A DNA stretch of 64,000 nt, from NCBI GenBank assembly GCA_033961575.1, contig CM066732.1:110238687-110302686 (forward strand). Reading direction: 5' to 3'. Source of the DNA: Aselliscus stoliczkanus (taxonomy: Eukaryota > Chordata > Mammalia > Chiroptera > Hipposideridae). A model generated the notes under the pieces. The model was not told the origin of the DNA. It did not search any database and saw only the letters and a list, made by a program, of their open reading frames with translations. Below, one piece after another: positions 22,591-51,886 of this stretch (its first letter is position 1; each line of letters opens with the position of its first letter). The position numbers and the translations under genes were made by a program.

Positions 22591-24535
22591 TGATAAATGA
22601 GAATATGCCAACTTAAATCAACATTACATTGCTGCTGAGTTAATAATGAATCTCATGGCAATAAAAACCTGATTATTGCCCCTATACTGGTACCAAACGA
22701 ACTCCAGATGTTGTAATAAACCTCAGACTTTGCAATTTCCCAGAAATTGGAAAATAAAACATTCCAAATCAAATGAATATCTTAGGGAGGTAACTTATCC
22801 TGGTTCAAGGAAAACAGGCATGAGATTTTTTTCCCACCACTTAATTTTTGCTTTCTAAGGACTCCCATCAAGTGTCTGAACTTAGGAAAAAGTGCCAATC
22901 TTATCTAACATTTTTATTATTTGTTAAAGTATAAAAATCACTCAGAAGTCACCCACCATTGTATAGTAATCTTTCTTTCTTTTTCTTTTTTCTTTTTACT
23001 GATTAGGTATATGTGTGTATGAATGTGCACTGTGTATAATACTTCCACGGGCATAAGTGTTTGCACATTAAATGTACCAATTCTAAATTAATTGGAAGTA
23101 ACATATGAACTCATTCATATAATTACAATTATTGTTGTATACAATTATTGTGATACAACCATAGTTATATTAAGTATCACAAAGTCTAAGATTTTGAAAT
23201 AATCAGGGTCTAAAGATGCTCTTGAGTCACTTTCAGCCTTTAACAGCCCAGGCTTTCACTCCCCTCCCGCCCCAGTACCTGCAGTTGCAATCTCCATCTC
23301 TTTAGTACCTTTATGAACTGAAAGTATAATTTTAAGGGATAGTGAAGAAGATGAGGGTTGTCATCTACATTTTCTATTTGATTTAACTCAGACTTAGTTT
23401 TCATCCCTAATTGAATTATATCATGCTAGAAATTAAATGGCTTTTCTTGGAAGTCACCCGGATCCTTTGAACAGATGTTCATTACTGAGTGACAGTCCTT
23501 CAAGATCCATGAGTAATCTTTTCAACTCCTCCAGTCTGAAAAGAATAGACAGTTTCTACTATATGCATTTCTAGGTAATTTTTTGTGTATCCAGCAGATT
23601 TTTGTTTTAAAACTGCATCACGACTGAGAACAGCATACCTCACTTTTGTGGCATGCCTATCACAAGCAGGAGGAAACTTCAGACATAATCCCAGGTGATG
23701 GACGTTCTACATAATAACAGGTCTGCGCTCTTCCAACAAAGCAGTGTCATTAAATACAGAGACTGAGGGAAAGCTTAAGATTGAAAGGCGATGAAAAAAT
23801 TAGGACCACTAAATGCAGTGTGTGATCTAGAATTTTCTTTTGCTAAGCACTTAATTACAATTGGGACAACATATGTGAGTAAGGTCTATAGATGAGATCA
23901 TAAAAATCTGAGTAGTGTCATGTTCCTTTCGGATTGGTTGGTAGGGAGACGTTTTTTACCTGCACATCAGACCCAGCCTTCCCTCCTCCCTGAGCCCATC
24001 TTTATGCTAGACCTCAGCCTCCTTAGACCCCATTCTGGATGGGGCTAGACCTGGCCACAGCCAGAGCTATGTGGGTGATAACTTGTCTGACCCTGAGCCT
24101 CATGTCCTCATACTTAGTGACACAGTTGCCTTCTCTCCATGATGACTGTTAGCAGCATTACATTCTGTTTAACCACCAACTGACAGCATTTCACCTTTTG
24201 TCAAAACAAGATGAGGGCATATGGGGAGGGAGGCTGGCCACATACCTTTGCCTCTTCTCTGAATAAAAAGCTCTGTGCTCAGAAAAGGGGGCGGGGGAAG
24301 CATTGTATCAATGTTAATCTTCAGATTTGGATAATTGTATCATGGTAATTTAAGAAAGTGTTCTTATTTTTAGTAAATACAAACAGAAATAGTTAGAGAT
24401 GAATATGCACCATGTCTGTAACTGACTTTCCAATCATTCATAAAGCAAACAAAATGTATTTGGGGAATCTCAGTGAAGGGTATAAGGGAATTTTTTGCAC
24501 TATTTTTGCAAATTTTCTGTAAGTCTGAAGTTGTC
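22591..24535. other. No recognised feature over about 1.9 kb
   Basis: SINE-free, AT-rich stretch. No open frame above 60 codons with any motif. It is the longest interval in the left half free of recent insertions. Confidence 0.45.
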
Positions 24536-38945: not shown

Positions 38946-40787
38946 ATTAGGTAAAAATTAAAAATTTAATTGATGGCAGAATCGTGCCTGCATTTATTAT
39001 ATTGTCCTATTGTGCTTTAGAGTTTGACATTCAAACTTTGGCTATAAATTACTTATTTGATTTATCAAAAAATATTTAGTTATTGTTAACGTTCCTGGAT
39101 ATACCTTTTTTTTTTTTAACGTGGAGAAGAGGGAGTACAAAGAATTTTACTGTTTTTTTTTCCCCTCCCAGATTAGATTAGTTACAGGTGTTACTTCTTA
39201 ATCTTGTTCTATGGAGATAAACACCTAAGCTCTTAACAGATGCAATGACAAACTTTTTTTTTTTTTTATTGAGTTATAATTAAGATAACATATTTGTTTC
39301 AAGTGTACAACATTGATTCAGTATATGTATGGTCACACATATTCTCCCAATAAATGCCCAGAAATGGAATTACAGGAGCATATGGTAATTCTACTTGTAA
39401 TTTTCTGAGAAACCTCCAAATTGCTTTCCAATTTACATTCCCACCAACAGTATACAAAGGTTCCCTTTTCTCTACATCCTCAAAAACATTTATTTCCTTT
39501 TCTTTTTTAACCTTTTGACCTTCTTTACCCATTTCTCCAACCCTCCCCCACACCTCACCTCTAGCAACCACTAATCTGTTCTCAGTATCTATGAGCTTGG
39601 TATTTGGGTTTTTTGTTTTGTTTTGTTTTGTTTTTTTAAAGATTCCACATATAAGAGAGATCATATAGTATTTCTCTTTCTCTGTCTGACTAATTTCACT
39701 TAGCATAATGCCCTCAAAGTGCATTCGTATTGTCACAAATGGCAAGATTTCATTCTCCTAGAGGTTGCATAATATTTCATTGTATACACATACAACAATT
39801 TCTTTATCCAGTTATCCATTGATGGGCACTTAGGTTGTTTCCATATCTTGGCTATTGTAAATAATGCTGCTGTGAACATGGGAGTCCATATATCTTTTTA
39901 AATTAGTGTTTTAAGTTTTTCTGGATAAATTCCAAGAAGTGAAATTTCTAGATTATTTAAGTTTTATTTTTAATTTTTTTGAGGAGCCTCCACACTGTTT
40001 CCATAGTGGCTGCACCAATTTACACTCCCAACCAACAGTGCACAGGGTTCCCTTTTCTCCACACCCTCCTCGCCAACCCTTGTTCTCTTTGATAATAGGT
40101 ATGAGGTGACATCTCATTGTGGTTTCGATTGGCATTTATTTCCATGATGATTAATGATGTGGAACATCTTTTCACGTACCTGTTGGCCATCTGTATCTAT
40201 TCTTTGGAAAAATATCTATTCAAATCCTCTGTTCATTTTTTAATCAAATTTTGTCTGGATTTTTTTTTCTGTTGAGTTGTATGAGCTCTTCCTATATATT
40301 CTCAATATTAGCCCCTTATCAGATATATGATTTGAAATATTTTCTCCCATTCCATAGGTTGCCTCTTTATTTTGTGGATGGTTTCCTTTGCTGTGCATAA
40401 TCTTGTTAGTTTGATATAGTTCCACTTGTATCTTTTTACTTTTGTTGCCTTTCCTTTTGGTGTCAATTTCAGAAAATCATTTCCAAAAATGATGTCAAGG
40501 AGCTTATCACCCATGTTTTCTTATGGGAGTTTTGTGGATTCAGGTCTTACATTCAAGTCTTCATTTTGTGTTAATTTTTGTGTATAGTGTAACACAGTGG
40601 TTAGTTTCATCCTTTTGCATGTAGCTGTCCAGTTTTCCAAAGTCATTTTTTGAAGGGACTGTCCTTTCCCCGTTGTATATTCTTGGCCCCTTTGTCATAA
40701 ATTAATCGACCACATATGCATGAGTTTATTTCTTAGCTCTCAATTCTGTCCCATTGATCTGTGTCTGTTTTTATTGCAGCATGATAC

Positions 40788-42506: not shown

Positions 42507-42746
42507 TTTAGGGTTTTTTATATATAGTATCATGTTATCTGCAAATAATGAGAGTTTACTTCTTCCTTTATAATTTAGATGCCTTCTATTTCCTTGTCTT
42601 GTCTGATTGCTGTGACTAGGACTTCCAATACTATGTTGAATAGAAATGGTGATAGTAGGCATCCTTGTCTTGTTCCTGATCTTAGACAAAAGGCTTTCAG
42701 CTTTACACCATTGAGTATGATATTAGGTGTGGCCTTTATAATATTG

Positions 42747-42752
42747 AGAGAT
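42747..42752. repeat. Provirus target-site duplication, left copy (agagat)
   Basis: The bases agagat directly precede the LTR and recur at 51673-51678. The joined flank reads as continuous L1 with a single agagat, so this is the integration site. Confidence 0.93.
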
Positions 42753-43197
42753 TGCCCCGACCGGCGGGGCATTCAACAGGGGCCGAGGGGCAGCCTTCTG
42801 AAAGGAGAAAATAGGAGGCGCGAAGAAATGGAGGCAAGACAGGGTTCTGATCAAGCCTCGTTTATTGAAGAACAGGAGGGGGCTTATATAGTCAAGGAAC
42901 TGGAAGGGGAGGGAAGGAATGTAAAGGCGGGAGTTGCCAATAGCAACGGGACTAGAAGGGGAGGAGGAATACGCAAAGGCGGGAGTTGCCAATAGCAACG
43001 GGACTAGTGGGGGAGGTAAAAAGAAAAAAGAAAATGGAAGTACCGAAAGGAGGAAGCACTATGGCTGTAGGGGGTAACCTTATAGGGCTCTGCTGATCAG
43101 AATGTGTTTGTTTAGACTCTGAGCCAAGGTTTGTTTAGACTCTGAGCCAATTACCTGTATGCAGTTGGGGAAAGTTCCTCATGCTCAGGCCCCAGCA
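42753..43197 (-). mobile_element. Provirus 3' LTR (445 bp)
   Basis: Bounded by TG...CA. Read on the minus strand it carries, in order, two tandem 22-bp repeats, two 33-bp repeats with CCAAT/X-box-like cores (42975-43007 and 42923-42955), TATATAAG (42883-42890) and AATAAA (42861-42866). It differs from the 5' LTR only around 43166-43175 by one substitution and one single-base indel. It can act as terminator and, in principle, as promoter for flanking host DNA to the left. Confidence 0.95.
42861..42866 (-). terminator. LTR polyadenylation signal AATAAA (3' LTR)
   Basis: AATAAA on the minus strand, 17 bp downstream of the TATA box. In betaretroviruses with a very short R region the signal lies this close to the cap site; the equivalent in the other LTR is 51335-51340. 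Confidence 0.8.
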
Positions 43198-43209
43198 TCT
43201 CCTCCCTCT
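43198..43209 (-). promoter_or_regulatory. Polypurine tract
   Basis: Minus strand AGAGGGAGGAGA directly abuts the TG of the 3' LTR. This is the expected position of the plus-strand DNA primer. Confidence 0.85.
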
Positions 43210-43489
43210 GTGTTTTAGAGGGTGGGCCTTAACCGAGTGGGAAAACAGTGGCCTGATTCCTCCCCAGGGGTCCGGCAGGGCCGAAAACCTTTGATGCCCT
43301 TGGTACCTTTTGTGGGAGGAAAGGCAGGGCAGAGAATATGAAAGGGTACCAACCTTTATGCAAATCAGGCATGTAATCAGGGAGATCTGAAGTTGGGTCT
43401 GTAAGGACCCTCCCTTGCAGTACTCAATAGCTGCAGCCAACTCGGTGCCCAGGGCTCGGAGGCCGGCATGTCTTCAGCCCACATGCCAT
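43210..43489 (-). promoter_or_regulatory. env-to-LTR untranslated interval; candidate RNA export element
   Basis: The 280 bases between the env stop and the polypurine tract have no open frame of note. Type-D retroviruses keep a constitutive transport element at this position, which binds the host NXF1/TAP exporter. Here I see an AAGACA motif on the minus strand near 43460 and an inverted repeat, ttggtacc/ggtaccaa at 43300-43307 and 43345-43352, able to form a hairpin. These are suggestive only; the classical duplicated internal loops are not obvious. Confidence 0.4.
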
Positions 43490-45277
43490 CTAGATATCAA
43501 TATATCGGGGGCCTGGCTTGGGAGGTCCTTGTTCCTCGGTGTCTGCCATAGCCAACCGATGGTAATGAACATGAATGGGTTTGGCCAGAATGTTATCAAT
43601 CTGCTGTTTGATAAAATTTGTCAGCGTTTTCCATGCCCAAGGCCCGAAGGAAAGAATTAGGAGCAGTCCTAAAAGGGGGCTGAGAATAGGGAGGAGGTAA
43701 GGCAAGAGACCGTGAAACCCGGTCAGGAAGGGGTTTTCAAGGAGTTGTTTTTTGCGTTGGAGCAGGTCGTCCTGGAGCTTCTTGACCTTATCTCGGACTA
43801 TGCCGGACTTGTTAGCGTAGAAGCAGCATCGTTCCTGCAGGGTCAAACAGATTCCCCCCTGTTCTGCAGTTAAAAGGTCAAGTCCCCGTCTGTTTTGCAA
43901 AACTACCTCAGCTAGTGAGTCAATTTGGTCCTGGAGATCACTAATGGTGCCAGACAGGGTGGTAACATCCTCAATAAGCTGGAGAGAGAGCTTTTGATAA
44001 GTGTGGATGGCTATTCCCGTACCAGTGGCGCCGGCCGCCATGGCCGTGGTAATGCCCAGCCCTGCCATGAGGGGGATAAATTGGAGGGCTCGCTTTGAGC
44101 GTCCTGGGAATAGATCAAGGGCCGGTACAGGGACCGGCTGGTCTCCAGGCAGAATGTCAATGTCAGGTAGGAGGAGGGCCTGGGCACAGAGACCAGACCA
44201 GTTAGCGGGGAGAGCCGTGAAAGCCAGGCTGTTGCCACAGACAAAAACGTGCCGAGGGCCGGGACAAGCGGGGGAGGTAGAATTGATGATGGAGGTGCAA
44301 TTTAAAGAAAAGAAACCAACATCAAGGGTGTCATTACTGGTGACGTTGGAAAACAGGCATGGACCATAGACCAAGCCCATGGGTTGAGTTCGGAAAGGGG
44401 ATGAAATATTGCAGTTTGAGGAGTTAAAAGAGGGCTTGGACAAGTTACTAGGAAGGGCAAGGGGTATGGGAATCCCCATAGCTATGCATAGCCAGCAGTC
44501 CTGAGCCAGAGTAGGGTTACTGTTATTTAAAGCCTGTAGCGTGGAGTTGAGGATGGACATGGTGTTAAAGTCTAAGTCAGTGGGCTTATGTTTTGGGAGA
44601 ATTAAGGGGTGATACGCAAGGGACGGAAAGTGGGCGGCAGCAAGTTCTTCTAGGCGTTTTTCGACCAGGATTTGTCTTACTTGGTCAGAGGGGCCTCCTC
44701 CATCCGACAAGTGGATAGGGGGGCGTTGGGGCCAGCAGACAGTGTCTCCCACCTTTTTATTATGTCCGCAGCCGGCCTGACTGCGGTGAGAGACTCCCGA
44801 GGGGCTGGTGTAGTCGCCTTCACCCCCCGTGGATCCCCGAAAAAGACGGGTCAGGATGGCTGTAAAATAAGTGACATTGTGTAACGTACATGTCTGTGCT
44901 GTAGCATAACAGGTACTATGGACGATTTGAGGGAGCGAGGCCCCAGCAGTGGTACAGGCCGTTGGGCAGGGACCAGGGCGGCCTCCGACGCTAGGGATGA
45001 CTGTGGGCTTGGGGACACAAACCCATCGGAAAGAGCTTGTATAGCCTCCGGTGACAGAGGGTTGTGACAATAGGTAGGCCAACTTAGAGCCACAGTCACT
45101 GTGAGTAAAGGAGGCACCAAGACCGTGGATGGTGCTGGTGGTACCGCCTCCACAGTCGCATGGCTTGCCGGCTAATTGTCGGTAGAGTTTTTCTCTGGAC
45201 ACAGGGGGGCCGAAACCCGCAGACACATATGAAGGCAGCAGGAGCGAGGATCCCAAAAGGAGGGTCAGGAGTAGCAT
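43490..45277 (-). CDS. env: Intact retroviral envelope glycoprotein (595 aa, RDR/type-D group)
   Basis: The Env precursor would mediate receptor binding and membrane fusion. The frame opens at ATG 45277 with a hydrophobic signal peptide (about residues 1-20) and runs unbroken to the stop. Visible in order: SDGGGPSDQVR at 191-201, matching the motif linked to the ASCT2 (SLC1A5) receptor in this group; CWLC at 261-264 for the SU-TM disulfide; RSKR at 393-396, a furin site; a glycine/alanine-rich fusion peptide at about 400-423; heptad region; an immunosuppressive-type segment at about 460-476 (LQNRRGLDLLTAEQGGI); C-X6-CC at 477-485; a membrane span at about 524-548; and a tail with YHRL at 572-575. 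About eleven N-glycosylation sequons are present. The length is normal for the group. Env starts 36 bases after the pol stop and would be expressed from a spliced mRNA. Receptor use is inferred, not shown. Confidence 0.95.
   Translation of the reverse strand: MLLLTLLLGSSLLLPSYVSAGFGPPVSREKLYRQLAGKPCDCGGGTTSTIHGLGASFTHSDCGSKLAYLLSQPSVTGGYTSSFRWVCVPKPTVIPSVGGRPGPCPTACTTAGASLPQIVHSTCYATAQTCTLHNVTYFTAILTRLFRGSTGGEGDYTSPSGVSHRSQAGCGHNKKVGDTVCWPQRPPIHLSDGGGPSDQVRQILVEKRLEELAAAHFPSLAYHPLILPKHKPTDLDFNTMSILNSTLQALNNSNPTLAQDCWLCIAMGIPIPLALPSNLSKPSFNSSNCNISSPFRTQPMGLVYGPCLFSNVTSNDTLDVGFFSLNCTSIINSTSPACPGPRHVFVCGNSLAFTALPANWSGLCAQALLLPDIDILPGDQPVPVPALDLFPGRSKRALQFIPLMAGLGITTAMAAGATGTGIAIHTYQKLSLQLIEDVTTLSGTISDLQDQIDSLAEVVLQNRRGLDLLTAEQGGICLTLQERCCFYANKSGIVRDKVKKLQDDLLQRKKQLLENPFLTGFHGLLPYLLPILSPLLGLLLILSFGPWAWKTLTNFIKQQIDNILAKPIHVHYHRLAMADTEEQGPPKPGPRYIDI
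44675..44707 (-). other. env: Env receptor-group motif SDGGGxxDxxR
   Basis: Residues 191-201 fit the pattern exactly. The motif is described in the literature for Envs of the RD114/type-D interference group, including human syncytin-1. Confidence 0.85.
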
Positions 45278-47337
45278 CTGTAAAGGGGGAGAGGGAGGAA
45301 GCGTCTCAGGGATCAGGTCCCTGGCGGTGGGGAGTTAGTGTTAGGGAGGTTGACAGGCTTAACTAGGCGAGCAGGCAACCAACGAGGGTTACATTCTTTG
45401 GTGTCATACACACAGGCAGATCCTCGTGCCCAGATAAGGACCGGGTCAGGCCCATTCCATATTGCAGTGAGGGGGTCTCGCCACATAACCCTGGCATATT
45501 GGTGTTTAGTTTTTGGTGCCAAAGACGGTCAGCGGCAGAGTTGCCCTGATCATCAAGTTGTAGGAAATTGAGCACAAATAGGGCGTGATGAAGGGTGTTA
45601 CGGTAAGAGCCTTTAGTGGGATAAGCTGTGGAAGCCTTGAGCTTGGACAAGGTGTTTTTTAAGGTTTGATGCGCTCGTTCGACGATTCCCTGCCCCTGGG
45701 GGTTGTAAGGGATGCCAGTGACATGGCAGATCTGAAATTGACCACAGAATTGTTTAAAAGCCTGGGAAGTATACCCGGGGCCATTGTCAGTCTTTATTTT
45801 TTGTGGTTTTCCCATCACCGTGAGGCATTGAAGGACATGAGCTATAACATTTTTTGTGGCTTCCCCCGTATGAAGGCTAGCGAAAATGAAACCACTGTAA
45901 GTGTCAATAGTGACATGAACATATTTTAAGGACCCGAACTCCGGGATGTGGGTAACGTCCATCTGCCAGATTTCGTTGGCGATAATCCCCCGGGGATTGA
46001 CCCCTAAATGGGGTGTGGGCAGGAGGGTAACGCATCCTGGGCAGGCTTTGACTATTTCTCTAGCTTGATCCCTGGTGATTTTGTATAGGAGGCGAAGCGT
46101 GCGGGCATTAAGATGGTGGAGCGCGTGACTTTGTTGAGCCCTTGTCAGAGGGTCAGCTAGGACTGGAAGGGCAAGACGGGTGTTGGCGTCTGCGAGGGCA
46201 TTGCCCTGAGCCAGTGGGCCAGGAAGGTCTGAATGGGCCCGCAGATGGCCGATAAAAAAGGGGTGGTGGCGTTTGGTGATAAGCTGTTGGAGCTCGCAGA
46301 AAAGAGGGACAGCGTTGCTGGAGGGTTTGATGTGGGGTACAGTTTCCAGAAGGGGCAGGGAAAAAGCAATGTAGGCACTGTCTGTATACAAGTTAAATGG
46401 GGTATCTTGTAGCTGAGTAAAGACTTGTAGTATGGCGAACAATTCTACGAGCTGCGCAGAATGATAGGGGGAGGGAACGGTAAAGGCTTGATTATTGATA
46501 ATGTATGCAGCCCTGCCTCCGGAGGAGCCATCAGTGAAAACCAGGGCGGCCGCCGGCAGGGGCTTGGAGCTTGTCACCTTAGGAAAGATAAAAGGGTGTA
46601 GCCGGGTGAACTGGAGTAGCCTATCTGCAGGGTAGTGATTGTCTATGTCCCCCAGGAAGGAGGAAAGAACCACTGGCCAGTCATTTTCGTTTTGCATGAG
46701 CCACTGAATTTGGGTCTTAGTATAAGGGAGAATGATTTTGTCAGGATCTTTTCCAAAATGTTGTCGGCTTTTTCTCTTCCTAATTGGATGATGTTAGCCG
46801 TCAGGGTGTAGTATGTGGTGAGAACCTTGTTGGGTGAGGAGGGCAGATGGACCCAGAGCAGGGGGCTCCTTGCCATAGTACTGCTGTGGGCGTATGGGGA
46901 GTGGCACAGACAACCAGGGAGAACGACTGGTGATAGGATATACATGTGATTTGTTGATTTTCAATAGCCGACTGGATTAGTTGAAGGGACTGTTGAGCCT
47001 CTCGAGTGAAATATCGGGGGGAGAGAGGGTCCGAATCGCCCTGGAGAAGGTCAAATAGGGGCTTTAATTGTGCTGTAGTTAGCTTAAGGTATGGCCTAAG
47101 CCAGTTGACGTCCCCCAGAAATTTTTGGAAATCATTAAGGGTATGTAGGTGAGATGTCTTTAATTGGATTTTTTGTGTGGTAATAGAGTTAGCGCGAAGC
47201 TCAAAGCCAAGGTAATAATAAGGGTCTGTTTGTTGGATTTTATTAGGGGCTATTTGAAGACCAAGCTGGGCAAGGTTTTTGGTGAGTTCCGCGGTACATT
47301 GAAGAACTTTATCTTGGGACGAACCAGCCAGGAGAAT

Positions 47338-47349
47338 ATCGTCCATATA
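47338..47349 (-). other. pol: Reverse transcriptase YMDD active site
   Basis: Minus strand encodes YMDD within IHYMDDILLAG. The two aspartates bind the catalytic metals in all known retroviral RTs. Confidence 0.95.
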
Positions 47350-47890
47350 ATGGATGATATAGATATAAGGCCATCGGGCGCGGAGAGGGTCTATTGCTTG
47401 AGCCACGAATTTTTGACACAGTGTGGGGCTGTTAGCCATACCTTGAGGAAGGACTTTCCACTGATAACGGGGCATGGGCCCTTTAAAGTTAACGACCGGG
47501 AGACTAAAGGCAAACCGTTCCCTATCTAAAGGATGAAGGGGGATGGTGAAAAAGCAATCCTTGAGGTCGATAATAATCTTTGAAAAGTCTGCTGGGATGG
47601 CAATGGGGAGGGGAGACCTGGTTGAAGGGCCCCCATGGAAAACATGGTTTTGTTTACCTCACGGAGATCCTGGAGAAGCCTCCAGGTTCCAGTTTTTTTC
47701 TTAATCACAAAGATAGGGGTATTCCACGGAGAGGTGGTAGGTTCAAGGTGGCCGGCCTTTAGCTGTTCCTGTACTAACTGCGTGGCGGCCGCGAGCTTTT
47801 CTGAGGTAAGTGGCCATTGATTTACCCATACAGGTTCATCCGATTTCCATCTTATTTTGTCTGCATGGGGTACAGGGAAGTCAATGGCCA

Positions 47891-48829
47891 CTAGGCTAAA
47901 TTTTGGTCGGGGTGGCCCAGGCCTGCCCGAGCGTGGTTTGGGCGGACCGTAATGGGCTGTTTAATGCCTTGTCCTGATTTGCCAAGCCCTTGTCCTGGGA
48001 GGAACCCGTGATTGAGCATCTGGTGGCCAACCACCTCATTTGGACTACACATAATAAGGTTCATCTGAGAAAGAATGTCGCGTCCCCAGAGATTGACTGG
48101 CAATCCAGGGACTATGTAGGGCCGTACATGGCCAGTATTGCCCTCTTTGTCAGTCCAGGTAAGGAGTCGGGTGCTCTGTTTGGGATTAGCAGATTGTCCT
48201 ATGCCTTGAAGGTGAGTGAGGGCGACGGTGGTGGGCCACGAGGGGGGCCACATATGAGAGGCAATAACCGTGGCATCAGCCCCGGTGTCAATAAGACCCT
48301 CAAAGGCTTTACCGTCAAGGTGTAAGGTGAGTAGGGGCCTGTTAGGCGTAACCTGTTTAATCCAGTATGTGTCTGAGGATCCGAAGGCAGAATGTTGTCG
48401 GGAATGAGGAAGGTTAGGTTGGTGGGAGGAGTTTAGAGGGAGTAGGACAAGTTGAGCGATTCTCTGGCCCTGTTGAATGGAGACCGGGCCACTGGGGGCC
48501 GAAACCGCGAGTGTGATGGTGCCTGTATAATCGTTGTCGACCACTCCCGGGACGACGTGGAGTCCGGCCAGGGCCGAGCTACCGCGTCCTAATATCAGGC
48601 CGAAAGTAACCGGGGGCAAGGGGCCACGTGCATTAGTAGGAAGAAGCCTGATTCCCTGATCAGGGGTTAGTATTGTTGAGGTGGAGGACAAGAGGTCCAG
48701 TCCCGCACTCCCTGGGGTGGCCCGGCAGAGGGAAGTGACGGGGAGTTTGGGGAGGGGAACTGTGGAACAAACCGTGTTGCCCCTGGTTTGTTCTGACGGC
48801 CCGGGGCCAGGGGCTGGCCCCGCAGGGAG
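47891..48829 (-). CDS. pro: pro: dUTPase, aspartic protease and G-patch, entered by frameshift
   Basis: This frame is reached by -1 frameshifting at 48829-48835 and is open to the stop at 47891-47893. In order it encodes a dUTPase (GSAGLDLLS start; [14 protein letters not shown] and [11 protein letters not shown] motifs), which hydrolyses dUTP; a retroviral aspartic protease with catalytic [10 protein letters not shown] and the downstream NLWGRDIL; and a G-patch ([19 protein letters not shown]), a feature of type-D and related betaretroviral Pro. No independent start is expected. The region appears intact, including the protease D-T-G and the glycine-rich patch. It overlaps gag by about 160 bases and ends at the AAATTTA site leading to pol. 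Confidence 0.93.
47897..47903 (-). promoter_or_regulatory. pro-pol -1 frameshift heptamer AAATTTA
   Basis: The minus-strand heptamer is in phase with pro as A AAT TTA, two codons before the pro stop (47891-47893). This fits the X XXY YYZ rule. After slippage the pol frame is open. Confidence 0.85.
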
Positions 48830-50725
48830 TTTCCCGATCGGGGGGGAATAGGATTTCCTGAGATATCAGTCTTTGAATGACAGTCTCTGGCCCAATGTTT
48901 ACCGCGTTTGCAACGAGGGCAGACGGTGGAAGGAGGTTGACGAGATGGTCTATCTAAGGGGCAGTCGCGGACAAAATGGCCGGGCTGTTTACAATTGAAG
49001 CAAGATTTGTGGTTATCTATAGCAAGGTTTTTGAGGGCAGCCCCAATGGCAACACCTATGGCATGAGATGTCCCTACATTAGAACAGAGTTTGATGTACT
49101 CTGAGAGAGGTCTATCACGATGGGAGCGAAGGGCATCCTGACAGGCAGAATTGGCATTTTCAAATGCAAGGTGTTTAATGAAGGCGCTCTCTGACTCCTC
49201 CTTGCCGATTAAGCGCTCAGCGGCTTCCGTTAAGCGGCTGATGAAATCACAGTAAGACTCGTCAGGTCCTTGATGAATCTTGGCTAGAGAGGTGCTGGCC
49301 GGTCCCTTAGGGGGAAGTTTGCGCCAGGCCTTGAGGCCAGCGTTTTGGATCTGGGCCAATAAGCCAGGGGGGAAGGCAGCCTGAATTTCATTGGTGTTAA
49401 AGGCTCCTCGGCCGAGGAGTCGGTCCCTCGTCCAATTACGAGAGGACCGGGTCTGAGCATTACGCTCCGCCGTTCTTCGGCAATTTTCTGCGTACTCAGT
49501 ACGCCATAAGACAAAATCGCCGCCGGACAAAGCAGCATGAGCTAAGGTATACCAATCATTAGGTGTTAGCCACCGGTCAGTAAGGCTCTCGAGCAAGGCA
49601 AGTGTAAAAGGGGCAGTCGGGCCATAAGTATGGACTGCGGATTTTAAGTCCTTAAGATATCTAATATTTAGGGGGCGGTATTTATGTCTACGTCCTGAAG
49701 TCTCTGAGGACTCAGCCTCCTCATCCGAAGGGGAGGGGTCTCGTTCTTCGGGCTCGTTATCGGACTCTACCGCAATTACCTCCTCATGGGAGGCTTCAGG
49801 GTTAGGGGTGTCAGGGTCGGCCTCAGCGGCCTGCCTTCGAGTGACTGGAAAGGTGAAAACGGGCTTTTGTTTGGGAGATGGCCTTGTTGAATGTTGGGAC
49901 GCAGGGGGAGCAGAGAGCGAGGCAAGTTCAGCCTCAAGAGCACGGAGTTCCTTGAGCAGGTTAAGGTGTTGGCGCTTTTCTTGAAGGGCCTCTCTGAGAG
50001 AGGCTATTTGTAAGGTTAGGGGAACATTTGTCTGGGTCCCTGGGGCAGTAAGGGGAGCGGATGGAGGGGTCAAATTAGTGACGGGAGTGTCCACGATAGA
50101 GGCAAAAAAAGGAGGTTGGTGAGGAGGCAAATATGGGGGTGGCTGAAAAGGCGGGGCAACCTTGAAGGGGGGGTCCTCTTGATGGTAGCGGGCAGCCTCC
50201 TCATCGAGGGTGGCCTGGTCTTCGGGAGGGAGGACTGTGTCTGAGCCCGAAGAAAGGTTTTGTAAACAGGGATAAAGCCTTGTTGACGGTTGGTTTAATG
50301 ACTCAGCCGGACTGGGGGCAGTAGGGGGCTTATTTTCTTGAGAAGGAATATCTATGCAAACCGACCCACAGGCAGACGGAGGACGAGAGGATTTCTTTAA
50401 TAGGTTTTCCCCTGTTTTGAGTATCTCTTTAACATCTGGGTCGTGGGAATGTACTTGGAGGATATCATTAATGAGACTCCAATAAGTAAAGGCAGAAACG
50501 GGGACCTTTTCGGGCCCGAATGACTTATAAAAATCCTGGAGAGCGTTACCGACACGCTTCCAATAGCACACGTCTATCGTTCCCTCCTGGGGAACCAGGG
50601 ACAGATATTTGTCAGAAGACCGAAGAATTGGCGGAGATCCTTTTTCTAGCCTTAATTCCCCGCACCTTGAGGGATGACTTTAAACCCGAGAGGAAAAGTT
50701 CGTGTGAACTTGTTGTTTGGCCCAT
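48667..50725 (-). CDS. gag: gag polyprotein, with two frame breaks near the N-terminus
   Basis: Gag builds the virion. The likely start is ATG at 50725-50723, encoding MGQTTSS, an N-myristoylation signal. The frame shifts by one base at about 50641-50645 and again at 50589-50592, both at homopolymers; from there it is open for about 640 codons to the stop at 48667. The matrix segment contains WKRVGNALQDFYKSFGPEKV, followed by a proline-rich region with the late-domain PPPY. The capsid has the major homology region (QGPDESYCDFISRL). The nucleocapsid has two CCHC zinc knuckles, CFNCKQPGHFVRDC (48961-49002) and CPRCKRGKHWARDC (48880-48921). The open 635-codon part has no ATG near its beginning, its first codon in common calls being GTG, which supports the upstream start. 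If the two shifts are real, Gag is truncated after about 40 residues. Confidence 0.92.
48802..48822 (-). promoter_or_regulatory. Frameshift-stimulating hairpin (9 bp, 3-nt loop)
   Basis: Minus strand CGGGGCCAG, loop CCC, CTGGCCCCG: a perfect nine-pair stem, mostly GC. The distance from the slippery site is 6 bases, within the usual 5-8. A pseudoknot with downstream G runs is possible but not shown. Confidence 0.85.
48829..48835 (-). promoter_or_regulatory. gag-pro -1 frameshift heptamer GGGAAAC
   Basis: In phase with gag as G GGA AAC, the classic slippery arrangement. It is followed after 6 bases by a strong hairpin. Confidence 0.92.
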
Positions 50726-51204
50726 TGTTTTCTCCTCGGCCCTTCAAACACTCGAAAAAACACTCAGATGCCCGTCTGGCCGTGCCCCTCGCGGGACTAA
50801 ATCTGTCTTGGCAAAAGCTCTGCGGTATAAGCCCCGCACTGGTGGACTGGGGCGACTCCGGAGAGTTCCGGAGTCGGCCACTCACAGCCCAGTCGCCGTT
50901 TAACCTTACGACAGAAACGGAACCGCAGATTAGGGCCCAATCAGATTCCGCGACCCGAAGTCTTGGAACCTCCACGCACTCACACAGACATACGACCGAG
51001 GAGACTATCACACCAATTTGTCATCCCAGAAACGTCTATTTTCTGTCAGTCTGCTCACCTTACTCAGATCAGGCTCACGGACCGGCTTTGTCCGTGGAGA
51101 TCAGGAAACGAGTCAGACTCGCGGGTCAATACCACGCGGCAACTCAGCGGTGTGTCCGGCCGGACTTGAAGCAGACAGTCTTCCGGAGGGCATGCAGTCC
51201 TCTG
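50726..51204 (-). other. Provirus 5' leader (packaging region)
   Basis: About 480 bases between the primer site and the gag start. By analogy it should hold the packaging signal and the major splice donor; I cannot assign either with certainty. Plus-strand open frames here are shadows. Confidence 0.7.
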
Positions 51205-51222
51205 GCCCCACGTTGGGCGCCA
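51205..51222 (-). promoter_or_regulatory. Primer-binding site, tRNA-Lys1,2
   Basis: Minus strand TGGCGCCCAACGTGGGGC is an 18-base match to the complement of the tRNA-Lys1,2 3' end, the primer of type-D retroviruses. It lies 4 bases after the 5' LTR. Confidence 0.93.
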
Positions 51223-51356
51223 GAAATGCCCCGACCGGCGGGGCATTCAACAGGGGCCGAGGGGCAGCCTTCTGAAAGGAGAAAATAGGAGGCGCGAAGA
51301 AATGGAGGCAAGACAGGGTTCTGATCAAGCCTCGTTTATTGAAGAACAGGAGGGGG

Positions 51357-51364
51357 CTTATATA
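51357..51364 (-). promoter_or_regulatory. LTR TATA box (TATATAAG)
   Basis: Minus-strand TATATAAG within the 5' LTR. Transcription should start about 25-30 bases on, near 51330-51337. Confidence 0.8.
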
Positions 51365-51396
51365 GTCAAGGAACTGGAAGGGGAGGGAAGGAATGT

Positions 51397-51481
51397 AAAG
51401 GCGGGAGTTGCCAATAGCAACGGGACTAGAAGGGGAGGAGGAATACGCAAAGGCGGGAGTTGCCAATAGCAACGGGACTAG
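51397..51481 (-). promoter_or_regulatory. LTR enhancer-like duplicated 33-bp elements
   Basis: Two identical 33-bp units (51397-51429, 51449-51481) each contain GTTGCTATTGGCAAC on the minus strand: an inverted CCAAT box (ATTGG, NF-Y) inside a GTTGC...GCAAC palindrome like the X-box bound by RFX proteins. The unit also carries a GC-rich CCCGCC. Factor binding is inferred from motif only. Confidence 0.6.
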
Positions 51482-51672
51482 TGGGGGAGGTAAAAAGAAA
51501 AAAGAAAATGGAAGTACCGAAAGGAGGAAGCACTATGGCTGTAGGGGGTAACCTTATAGGGCTCTGCTGATCAGAATGTGTTTGTTTAGACTCTGAGCCA
51601 AGGTTTGTTTAGACTCTGAGCCAATTACCTGTATGCAGTTGGGGGAAGGTTCCTCATGCTCAGGCCCCAGCA

Positions 51673-51678
51673 AGAGAT
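51673..51678. repeat. Provirus target-site duplication, right copy (agagat)
   Basis: Pairs with 42747-42752. The L1 text continues directly after it. Confidence 0.93.
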
Positions 51679-51872
51679 ATTCCTATTATACCCACTTTGT
51701 GATAGGTGTTTAAGTTCAGATATATTCTATAAGGACTACTATGTTTTTACTTCCCTCTCCATGCTTTATGTTATTGATGTCATATTTTAAATATTTTGTG
51801 CTCTCTTCTAACTACTTATTTTGTAGTTCGAGTTCAGTGACTCTATACAGTCTCTGTCTTGACTGTTTTACA
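51679..51872. other. L1 continuation, then unassigned insert
   Basis: The first 25 or so bases ('attcctattatacccacttt') continue the antisense L1. From about 51704 the text no longer matches L1, and the L1 resumes only near 54206, so 51704-54205 is inserted material, partly unidentified. Confidence 0.6.
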
Positions 51873-51886
51873 AAAAGTCCCATGTA

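What the first reader, a model, noticed from the sequence alone, without database searches (positions are those of the whole stretch)
42753..51672. Near-complete type-D betaretrovirus-like provirus in a probable bat genome
All structural parts of a type-D betaretrovirus are present in order on the minus strand, with catalytic residues retained and pro and env open. Outside the near-identical LTRs, no later SINE or L1 has inserted into nearly 9 kb, while the flanks carry roughly one SINE per 1.5-2 kb. It is the one locus here that could have been a replicating virus recently. I cannot say whether this lineage has been described.
Basis: partly seen in the sequence, partly recalled or inferred. 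Interest (0 to 1): 0.92.

Follow-up and report, generated by a model that had tools for sequence, protein, structure and literature searches.

The report
Young, broken MPMV-like betaretrovirus provirus
A nearly complete but disabled copy of a Mason-Pfizer-monkey-virus-like retrovirus sits in this mammalian genome, inserted fairly recently by evolutionary standards; it is a new locus of a well-known kind of endogenous retrovirus rather than something unheard of.

Summary
The provirus is real: window 42753-51672, minus strand, 8,920 bp. LTRs of 446/445 bp differ by one substitution and one base of length; there is a 6-bp target duplication (AGAGAT), an 18-nt lysine-type primer site and a purine tract. 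gag, pro (dUTPase, protease, G-patch), pol and env follow in betaretroviral order, with -1 frameshift heptamers at both frame changes. Gag, Pro and Pol match betaretroviral structures best. Env is gamma-type, open for 595 codons, with the SDGGGxxDxxR motif of the RD114/D-type interference group. The downstream flank is clearly L1 ORF2. This is the layout of Hayward's bat "group VIII" betaretroviruses and of MPMV, SMRV, PSRV1 and koala phaCin-beta. As assembled this copy cannot replicate: gag has one frameshift, pol two. LTR divergence suggests about 0.5-6 million years, depending on rate and on counting the indel. The bat host was not testable. No tree could be built and no host copies counted: the protein database was off and the genome search did not complete. 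New member of a known kind.

The parts
51227..51672 (-). 5' LTR, 446 bp, TG...CA; TATATA at LTR position 309, AATAAA at 333, two tandem repeat arrays in U3 (52 nt x 2.3; 23 nt x 2) with GTTGCTATTGGCAAC palindromes at LTR positions 200 and 252
42753..43197 (-). 3' LTR, 445 bp; one substitution and one base of length from the 5' LTR
51673..51678 (.). target site duplication AGAGAT (5' side of the provirus)
42747..42752 (.). target site duplication AGAGAT (3' side of the provirus)
51205..51222 (-). primer binding site, 18 nt, 4 nt after the 5' LTR; tRNA-Lys1,2 type (identity of the tRNA recalled)
50612..50725 (-). gag start (ATG at 50725, Met-Gly) in a frame whose stop codon begins at 50614; the main gag frame opens at 50679, so a frameshift lies between 50679 and 50614
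48667..50679 (-). main gag frame, 670 codons: matrix remainder, PPPY/PSAP, capsid with MHR, two CCHC knuckles
48829..48835 (-). candidate gag-pro -1 frameshift heptamer GGGAAAC in the right register, followed by two predicted stems
47891..48865 (-). pro frame, 324 codons, open: dUTPase, aspartic protease (DTGA), G-patch
47897..47903 (-). candidate pro-pol -1 frameshift heptamer AAATTTA in the right register (no stable simple stem downstream)
47526..47960 (-). pol piece 1: RT N-terminal part
   Evidence: no Pfam hit
46801..47658 (-). pol piece 2 (other frame): RT palm with YMDD, thumb
45363..46793 (-). pol piece 3 (back in the first frame): RNase H and integrase (HHCC, D, D, E present)
43490..45277 (-). 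env, 595 codons, open: hydrophobic signal-like start, SDGGGxxDxxR, CWLC, RSKR, immunosuppressive-type stretch, CX6CC, membrane span
43198..43489 (-). env-LTR spacer ending in the polypurine tract (43198-43209); open frame of 112 codons (43473 into the LTR at 43135) with its only Met at codon 98
42508..42746 (-). host L1 ORF2 sequence downstream of the insertion
51679..51884 (-). host sequence upstream of the insertion, probably the same L1 ORF2 (only about 7 residues of the ORF2 match lie on this side)

Best explanation
This is an endogenous provirus of the gamma-env (MPMV/SMRV-like, 'type D') betaretroviruses. Shown: LTR-flanked integration with a 6-bp duplication into L1 sequence; betaretroviral gag-pro-pol layout with -1 frameshift heptamers in register; dUTPase and G-patch in pro; an Env of gamma type with the RDR-group receptor motif. 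Inferred: a virus with this genome entered germ cells using its Env (probably ASCT1/2, from the motif), reverse transcribed from a tRNA-Lys primer and integrated within the last few million years; the copy is now inherited as host DNA. It is defective as assembled (one frameshift in gag, two in pol), so it could contribute at most Env and separately read fragments, or be carried by helper proteins from intact relatives.
For: Exact LTR/TSD/PBS/PPT anatomy. Retroviral Pfam families in order in 5 of 8 pieces given. Matches by sequence to solved structures: capsid 50.5%, protease 59.8%, dUTPase 52.0%, TM core 72.5% identity, M-PMV proteins by recall. RT pieces score 261 and 112.5 bits against 7sr6 versus 112 and 69 for the next chain (best 60 of 205 shown in each). 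Integrase scores 260 bits against 5cz2/3jca versus about 120 for the next integrases (best 60 of 130 shown). Heptamers GGGAAAC and AAATTTA in register. SDGGGPSDQVR, RSKR, CX6CC. L1 ORF2 match over the joined empty site. Group VIII description (PMC3621094).
Against: The highest-scoring solved chain for Env is Syncytin-2 (174.6 bits over 242 residues), then Syncytin-1, ahead of the shorter 4jf3 TM core, so Env alone does not single out MPMV. The post-env ORF described for bat group VIII members is not matched in its details. Hayward reports four-nucleotide TSDs for bat betaERVs; this one has six, as koala phaCin-beta does. Three coding frameshifts look many beside one LTR substitution, which may mean assembly indels or LTR gene conversion.
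Confidence: 0.9

Rival explanations
1. The three coding frameshifts are sequencing or assembly indels, and the real locus carries full reading frames, so it could be a virus that replicated very recently.
For: Three frameshifts but otherwise long open pieces of 670, 324, 144, 285, 476 and 595 codons, beside one LTR substitution in 446 sites. One of the two LTR differences is a length difference in a run of C.
Against: Few changes are expected at this age, so the lack of further stops says little. DrERV QR09 and the Pteropus group VIII copies also carry stops or frameshifts. No reads were available.
Confidence: 0.2
2. An older insertion whose LTRs were made alike by gene conversion, so that the age from LTRs is too low.
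For: Frameshifts in gag and pol with nearly identical LTRs. Hayward names gene conversion as a caveat of LTR dating.
Against: No SINE head inside 8.9 kb where 4.9 are expected (P about 0.008). Six long open pieces remain, and the TSD copies are identical.
Confidence: 0.12
3. The locus was kept because Env was co-opted by the host (receptor interference or a syncytin-like role) while gag and pol decay.
For: Of gag, pol and env, env alone is open at full length from an ATG. The RDR motif and the fusion-related motifs are kept; Env's best solved matches are syncytins.
Against: At one LTR substitution, chance alone can easily leave a 595-codon frame open; pro is open too. Syncytins are themselves gamma-type Envs. 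No expression or selection data.
Confidence: 0.05
4. A gammaretrovirus (RD114-like) rather than a betaretrovirus.
For: Env is gamma-type (PF00429; syncytin matches).
Against: dUTPase and G-patch in pro, separate pro frame, lysine-type PBS; Gag, RT and IN match betaretroviral structures best.
Confidence: 0.01

Closest known systems
Group VIII bat betaERVs, PvERV-betaJ/K and PaERV-betaA (Hayward 2013, PMC3621094)
   Same: Gamma-type Env on a betaretroviral core with dUTPase; PBS Lys1,2 (J, K); similar length (J: 8,773 nt, LTR 427; here 8,920 and 446); gag defective in all three
   Different: 6-bp TSD here, 4-nt TSDs reported for that paper's bat betaERVs; the post-env ORF does not start or stop where reported and lacks an early Met. 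Sequence identity not measurable here.
Mason-Pfizer monkey virus / simian type D retroviruses
   Same: Layout, dUTPase, gamma-type Env; also G-patch, frameshift heptamers, PPPY and PSAP in Gag (seen here; their presence in MPMV is recalled)
   Different: Only 50-60% identical in capsid, protease and dUTPase, 72.5% in the TM core (chain identities as M-PMV recalled): clearly not the same virus
SMRV, PSRV1, koala phaCin-beta, pangolin ERV-Beta lineages; DrERV and TvERV as clade mates
   Same: Betaretroviral core; gamma-type Env reported for SMRV and phaCin-beta, PSRV1 and pangolin; DrERV and TvERV seen only as members of the same clade
   Different: No sequence of these was available, so the nearest relative among them is unknown
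RD114/D-type (RDR) interference group Env
   Same: SDGGGxxDxxR, ISD-type stretch, CX6CC
   Different: Receptor use untested

Membership tests
Betaretrovirus (class II ERV) | pro in its own frame between gag and pol, each reached by -1 frameshift | tested here: met
   Frames and overlaps; GGGAAAC and AAATTTA in register, with a CCCAAAC also in register in each overlap; stems after GGGAAAC, none convincing after AAATTTA. Shifting itself not assayed
Betaretrovirus (class II ERV) | dUTPase domain in pro | tested here: met
   PF00692, E 6e-25; defining role from PMC3621094
Betaretrovirus (class II ERV) | Lysine tRNA primer binding site | tested here: met
   18-nt site at 51205-51222; that it is the Lys1,2 type is recalled, no tRNA sequence was fetched
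Betaretrovirus (class II ERV) | RT/integrase inside the betaretrovirus clade | tested here: inconclusive
   Best PDB scores are to 7sr6 and 5cz2/3jca (HERV-K RT and MMTV integrase, names recalled); no tree possible
MPMV-like gamma-env betaretroviruses (Hayward group VIII) | Gamma-type Env (clusters with gammaretroviruses) | tested here: met
   PF00429 E 5.8e-134, CX6CC and ISD-type stretch, TM 72.5% to 4jf3; by family model and motifs, not by a tree
MPMV-like gamma-env betaretroviruses (Hayward group VIII) | PBS Lys1,2 and LTR of 300-500 nt | tested here: met
   (tRNA identity recalled); Hayward's values
[quoted passage not shown]
   Open frame of 112 codons here begins 17 nt after env and ends 63 nt into the LTR, only Met at codon 98; mononucleotide-shuffle P 0.036
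RDR interference group | SDGGGxxDxxR in SU | tested here: met
   Env residues 191-201; motif definition from PMC12584738 and PMC10152393 passages
RDR interference group | Use of ASCT1/ASCT2 as receptor | not testable with these tools
   needs a bench assay
Replication-competent provirus | All of gag, pro, pol, env open | tested here: not met
   gag one frameshift, pol two as assembled

The most novel reading that the evidence does not exclude
An undescribed MPMV-like betaretrovirus lineage has been colonising this host's germline within the last million years or so and may still circulate; this locus is one of several young, possibly insertionally polymorphic copies, some with all genes open, carrying an RDR-type Env.
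Probability: 0.2. Interest if true: 0.6.

Novelty: new member of a known kind. Interest (0 to 1): 0.3.

Why it matters
It adds a well-preserved, datable locus to the record of gamma-env betaretroviruses, a clade whose hosts are so scattered that cross-species jumps are inferred (PMC9825726 passage). If the lineage proves young and polymorphic, it would be another natural case, like koala phaCin-beta, of a betaretrovirus entering a germline in recent time. If not, it is an ordinary ERV.

Tried and rejected
Gammaretrovirus identity rejected (dUTPase, pro frame, PBS, Gag/RT/IN matches). Other copies in the window: none found; beyond the LTR pair only a 25-nt hit of 92% at 22975-22999, and the best hit of any of six protein pieces outside the provirus has E 0.16. 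Rfam found nothing over the window at gathering threshold or over 43100-43550 at E up to 1, so an MPMV-type transport element is not shown; the env-LTR spacer folds only slightly better than shuffles (z -1.45, 17 of 200 as good). AlphaFold models of the RT piece and of Env, made without relatives, were poor (mean pLDDT 45.0 and 42.2), so no fold search was run. IMG/VR scans with Env, RT and Pro matched 1, 2 and 3 stretches, none confirmed as a relative. A scan with the 18-nt PBS returned one contig, not identified further, with no tblastn similarity (E up to 1e-3) to six provirus protein pieces: taken as a chance match. Eight literature searches gave no paper that I could tie to this locus; as the species is unknown and only open papers are held, that is not proof of absence. 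The SINE paper search did not identify the SINE.
Full report
Anatomy. The two LTRs were found by an exact 300-nt repeat at spacing 8,474 and delimited to 51227-51672 and 42753-43197. They begin TG and end CA and are flanked by AGAGAT on both sides. Aligned, they differ by one substitution and one base of length, within a few nucleotides of each other near the start of U3. The 18-nt primer site follows the 5' LTR after four bases and occurs once in the window. The 3' LTR is preceded by a purine tract. The LTR has TATATA at 309, AATAAA at 333, and tandem 52-nt and 23-nt U3 repeats; the 52-nt array holds a GTTGC-GCAAC palindrome twice, which resembles RFX-type sites (recalled).

Genes. Of 8 open pieces given to Pfam, 5 hit retroviral families in the expected order and 3 hit none; one of those three is the RT N-terminus by comparison with solved structures. 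gag starts at ATG 50725 (Met-Gly), but its frame closes at 50614 and the remaining 670 codons lie in another frame from 50679, so the matrix region holds a frameshift. The rest of Gag has PPPY, PSAP, the capsid with its major homology region, and two zinc knuckles. The gag-pro overlap holds GGGAAAC at 48835 in the register needed for a -1 shift, followed by two predicted stems (60 nt downstream z -3.3 against mononucleotide shuffles; 76 nt from the heptamer z -2.3, 2 of 200 dinucleotide shuffles as good); a second heptamer, CCCAAAC, also fits the register (downstream z -1.1). pro is open and carries dUTPase, protease with DTGA, and G-patch. The pro-pol overlap holds AAATTTA at 47903 (downstream z +0.7) and a CCCAAAC (z -0.8), neither with a convincing simple stem; pseudoknots were not modelled. 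pol starts in the frame that a -1 shift reaches, moves to another frame inside RT and returns near 46.8 kb: two frameshifts. The catalytic motifs looked for are present: YMDD, RNase H FTDGS, the HHCC zinc motif, and integrase D, D and E. env runs 595 codons from ATG 45277, with a hydrophobic start, SDGGGPSDQVR, CWLC, RSKR, an ISD-type stretch, CX6CC and a membrane span near residue 523.

Relationship. Sequence matches to solved structures: capsid 99 of 196 identical, protease 67 of 112, dUTPase 79 of 152, TM core 74 of 102. Those chains are M-PMV proteins by my recall; the tool's own names say M-PMV only for some matrix entries. A second Gag chain, 8c9m, scores nearly as high as the capsid chain because it is longer (203 against 212 bits). 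RT scores best against 7sr6, ahead of lentiviral chains among those shown, and integrase against 5cz2/3jca, ahead of chains that I recall as alpharetroviral and ones named HTLV-2 and lentiviral (HERV-K RT and MMTV integrase by recall). For Env the highest-scoring chain is Syncytin-2, then Syncytin-1, then the 104-residue 4jf3 core, which has the highest score per residue of these three; all are gamma-type Envs. A betaretroviral core with a gamma-type Env and a Lys1,2 primer site is what Hayward et al. describe for the bat members of group VIII (PMC3621094), with PvERV-betaJ as representative. A betaretroviral core with a gamma-type Env is also reported for MPMV, SMRV and koala phaCin-beta (PMC9231498), PSRV1 (PMC7997422) and pangolin lineages (PMC12584738). 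The SDGGGxxDxxR motif is described as important or essential for ASCT1/2 binding in the RDR group. No sequence of these relatives was available, so the nearest relative is unknown.

Insertion site and age. Joining the flanks with one AGAGAT gives a host frame in which 66 residues match human L1 ORF2p, E 4.1e-19. Most of the match lies downstream of the insertion; about 7 residues lie upstream, and a five-residue gap falls a few residues past the junction, so the upstream side is weaker evidence. One LTR substitution in 446 sites gives 2.8, 1.2 or 0.5 million years at 0.4, 0.95 or 2.2e-9 substitutions per site per year; counting the length difference too gives 5.6, 2.4 or 1.0. The first two rates are my back-calculation from Hayward's Table 3 and the third is a recalled mammalian rate. 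So few differences leave wide bounds. No SINE head lies in the provirus where 4.9 would be expected, but the flanks gathered SINEs over a far longer time, so this shows only that the provirus is younger than most of them.

State. As assembled the copy is defective. The mix of three coding frameshifts, otherwise long open pieces and almost identical LTRs fits either a few chance indels since insertion, indel errors in the assembly, or an insertion somewhat older than its LTRs suggest. These cannot be separated without reads.

Oddities. The 670-codon Gag piece has no methionine at all (Markov expectation 6.9 per frame; Poisson P about 0.001). A 205-codon antisense frame spans the 5' LTR end, leader and gag start (Markov P 0.03).

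Limits. The protein database was switched off and the host-genome search did not complete (7 of 7 tries). Copy number, orthology, host identity and trees are therefore open. Interest is modest: a good specimen of a known kind.

Noticed in passing
48670-50679 (-): The 670-codon Gag piece contains no methionine; ATG is present 15 times in the next frame. Markov expectation 6.9 in frame. May be an amino-acid-level oddity of this lineage.
   Followed up: partly
50671-51288 (+): Antisense open frame of 205 codons (204 from ATG at 50674) across the 5' LTR end, leader and gag start; no Pfam hit at E up to 1, Markov P about 0.03.
   Followed up: partly
43135-43473 (-): Open frame of 112 codons between env and the 3' LTR, near where bat group VIII members have an ORF, but without an early Met; no Pfam hit at E up to 1.
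   Followed up: partly
51407-51473 and 42933-42999 (U3): GTTGCTATTGGCAAC palindrome twice in the U3 tandem repeat, RFX-site-like and containing ATTGG (likeness recalled).
   Followed up: no
whole window: 30 heads of one SINE family; the SINE looks tRNA-derived and like those of some bats by recall only, and the literature search did not settle it.
   Followed up: partly
39302-39757 (-): 152-codon open frame with a sub-threshold Gag_p10 match (E 0.047) and no tblastn hit from the provirus Gag piece; probably chance.
   Followed up: partly
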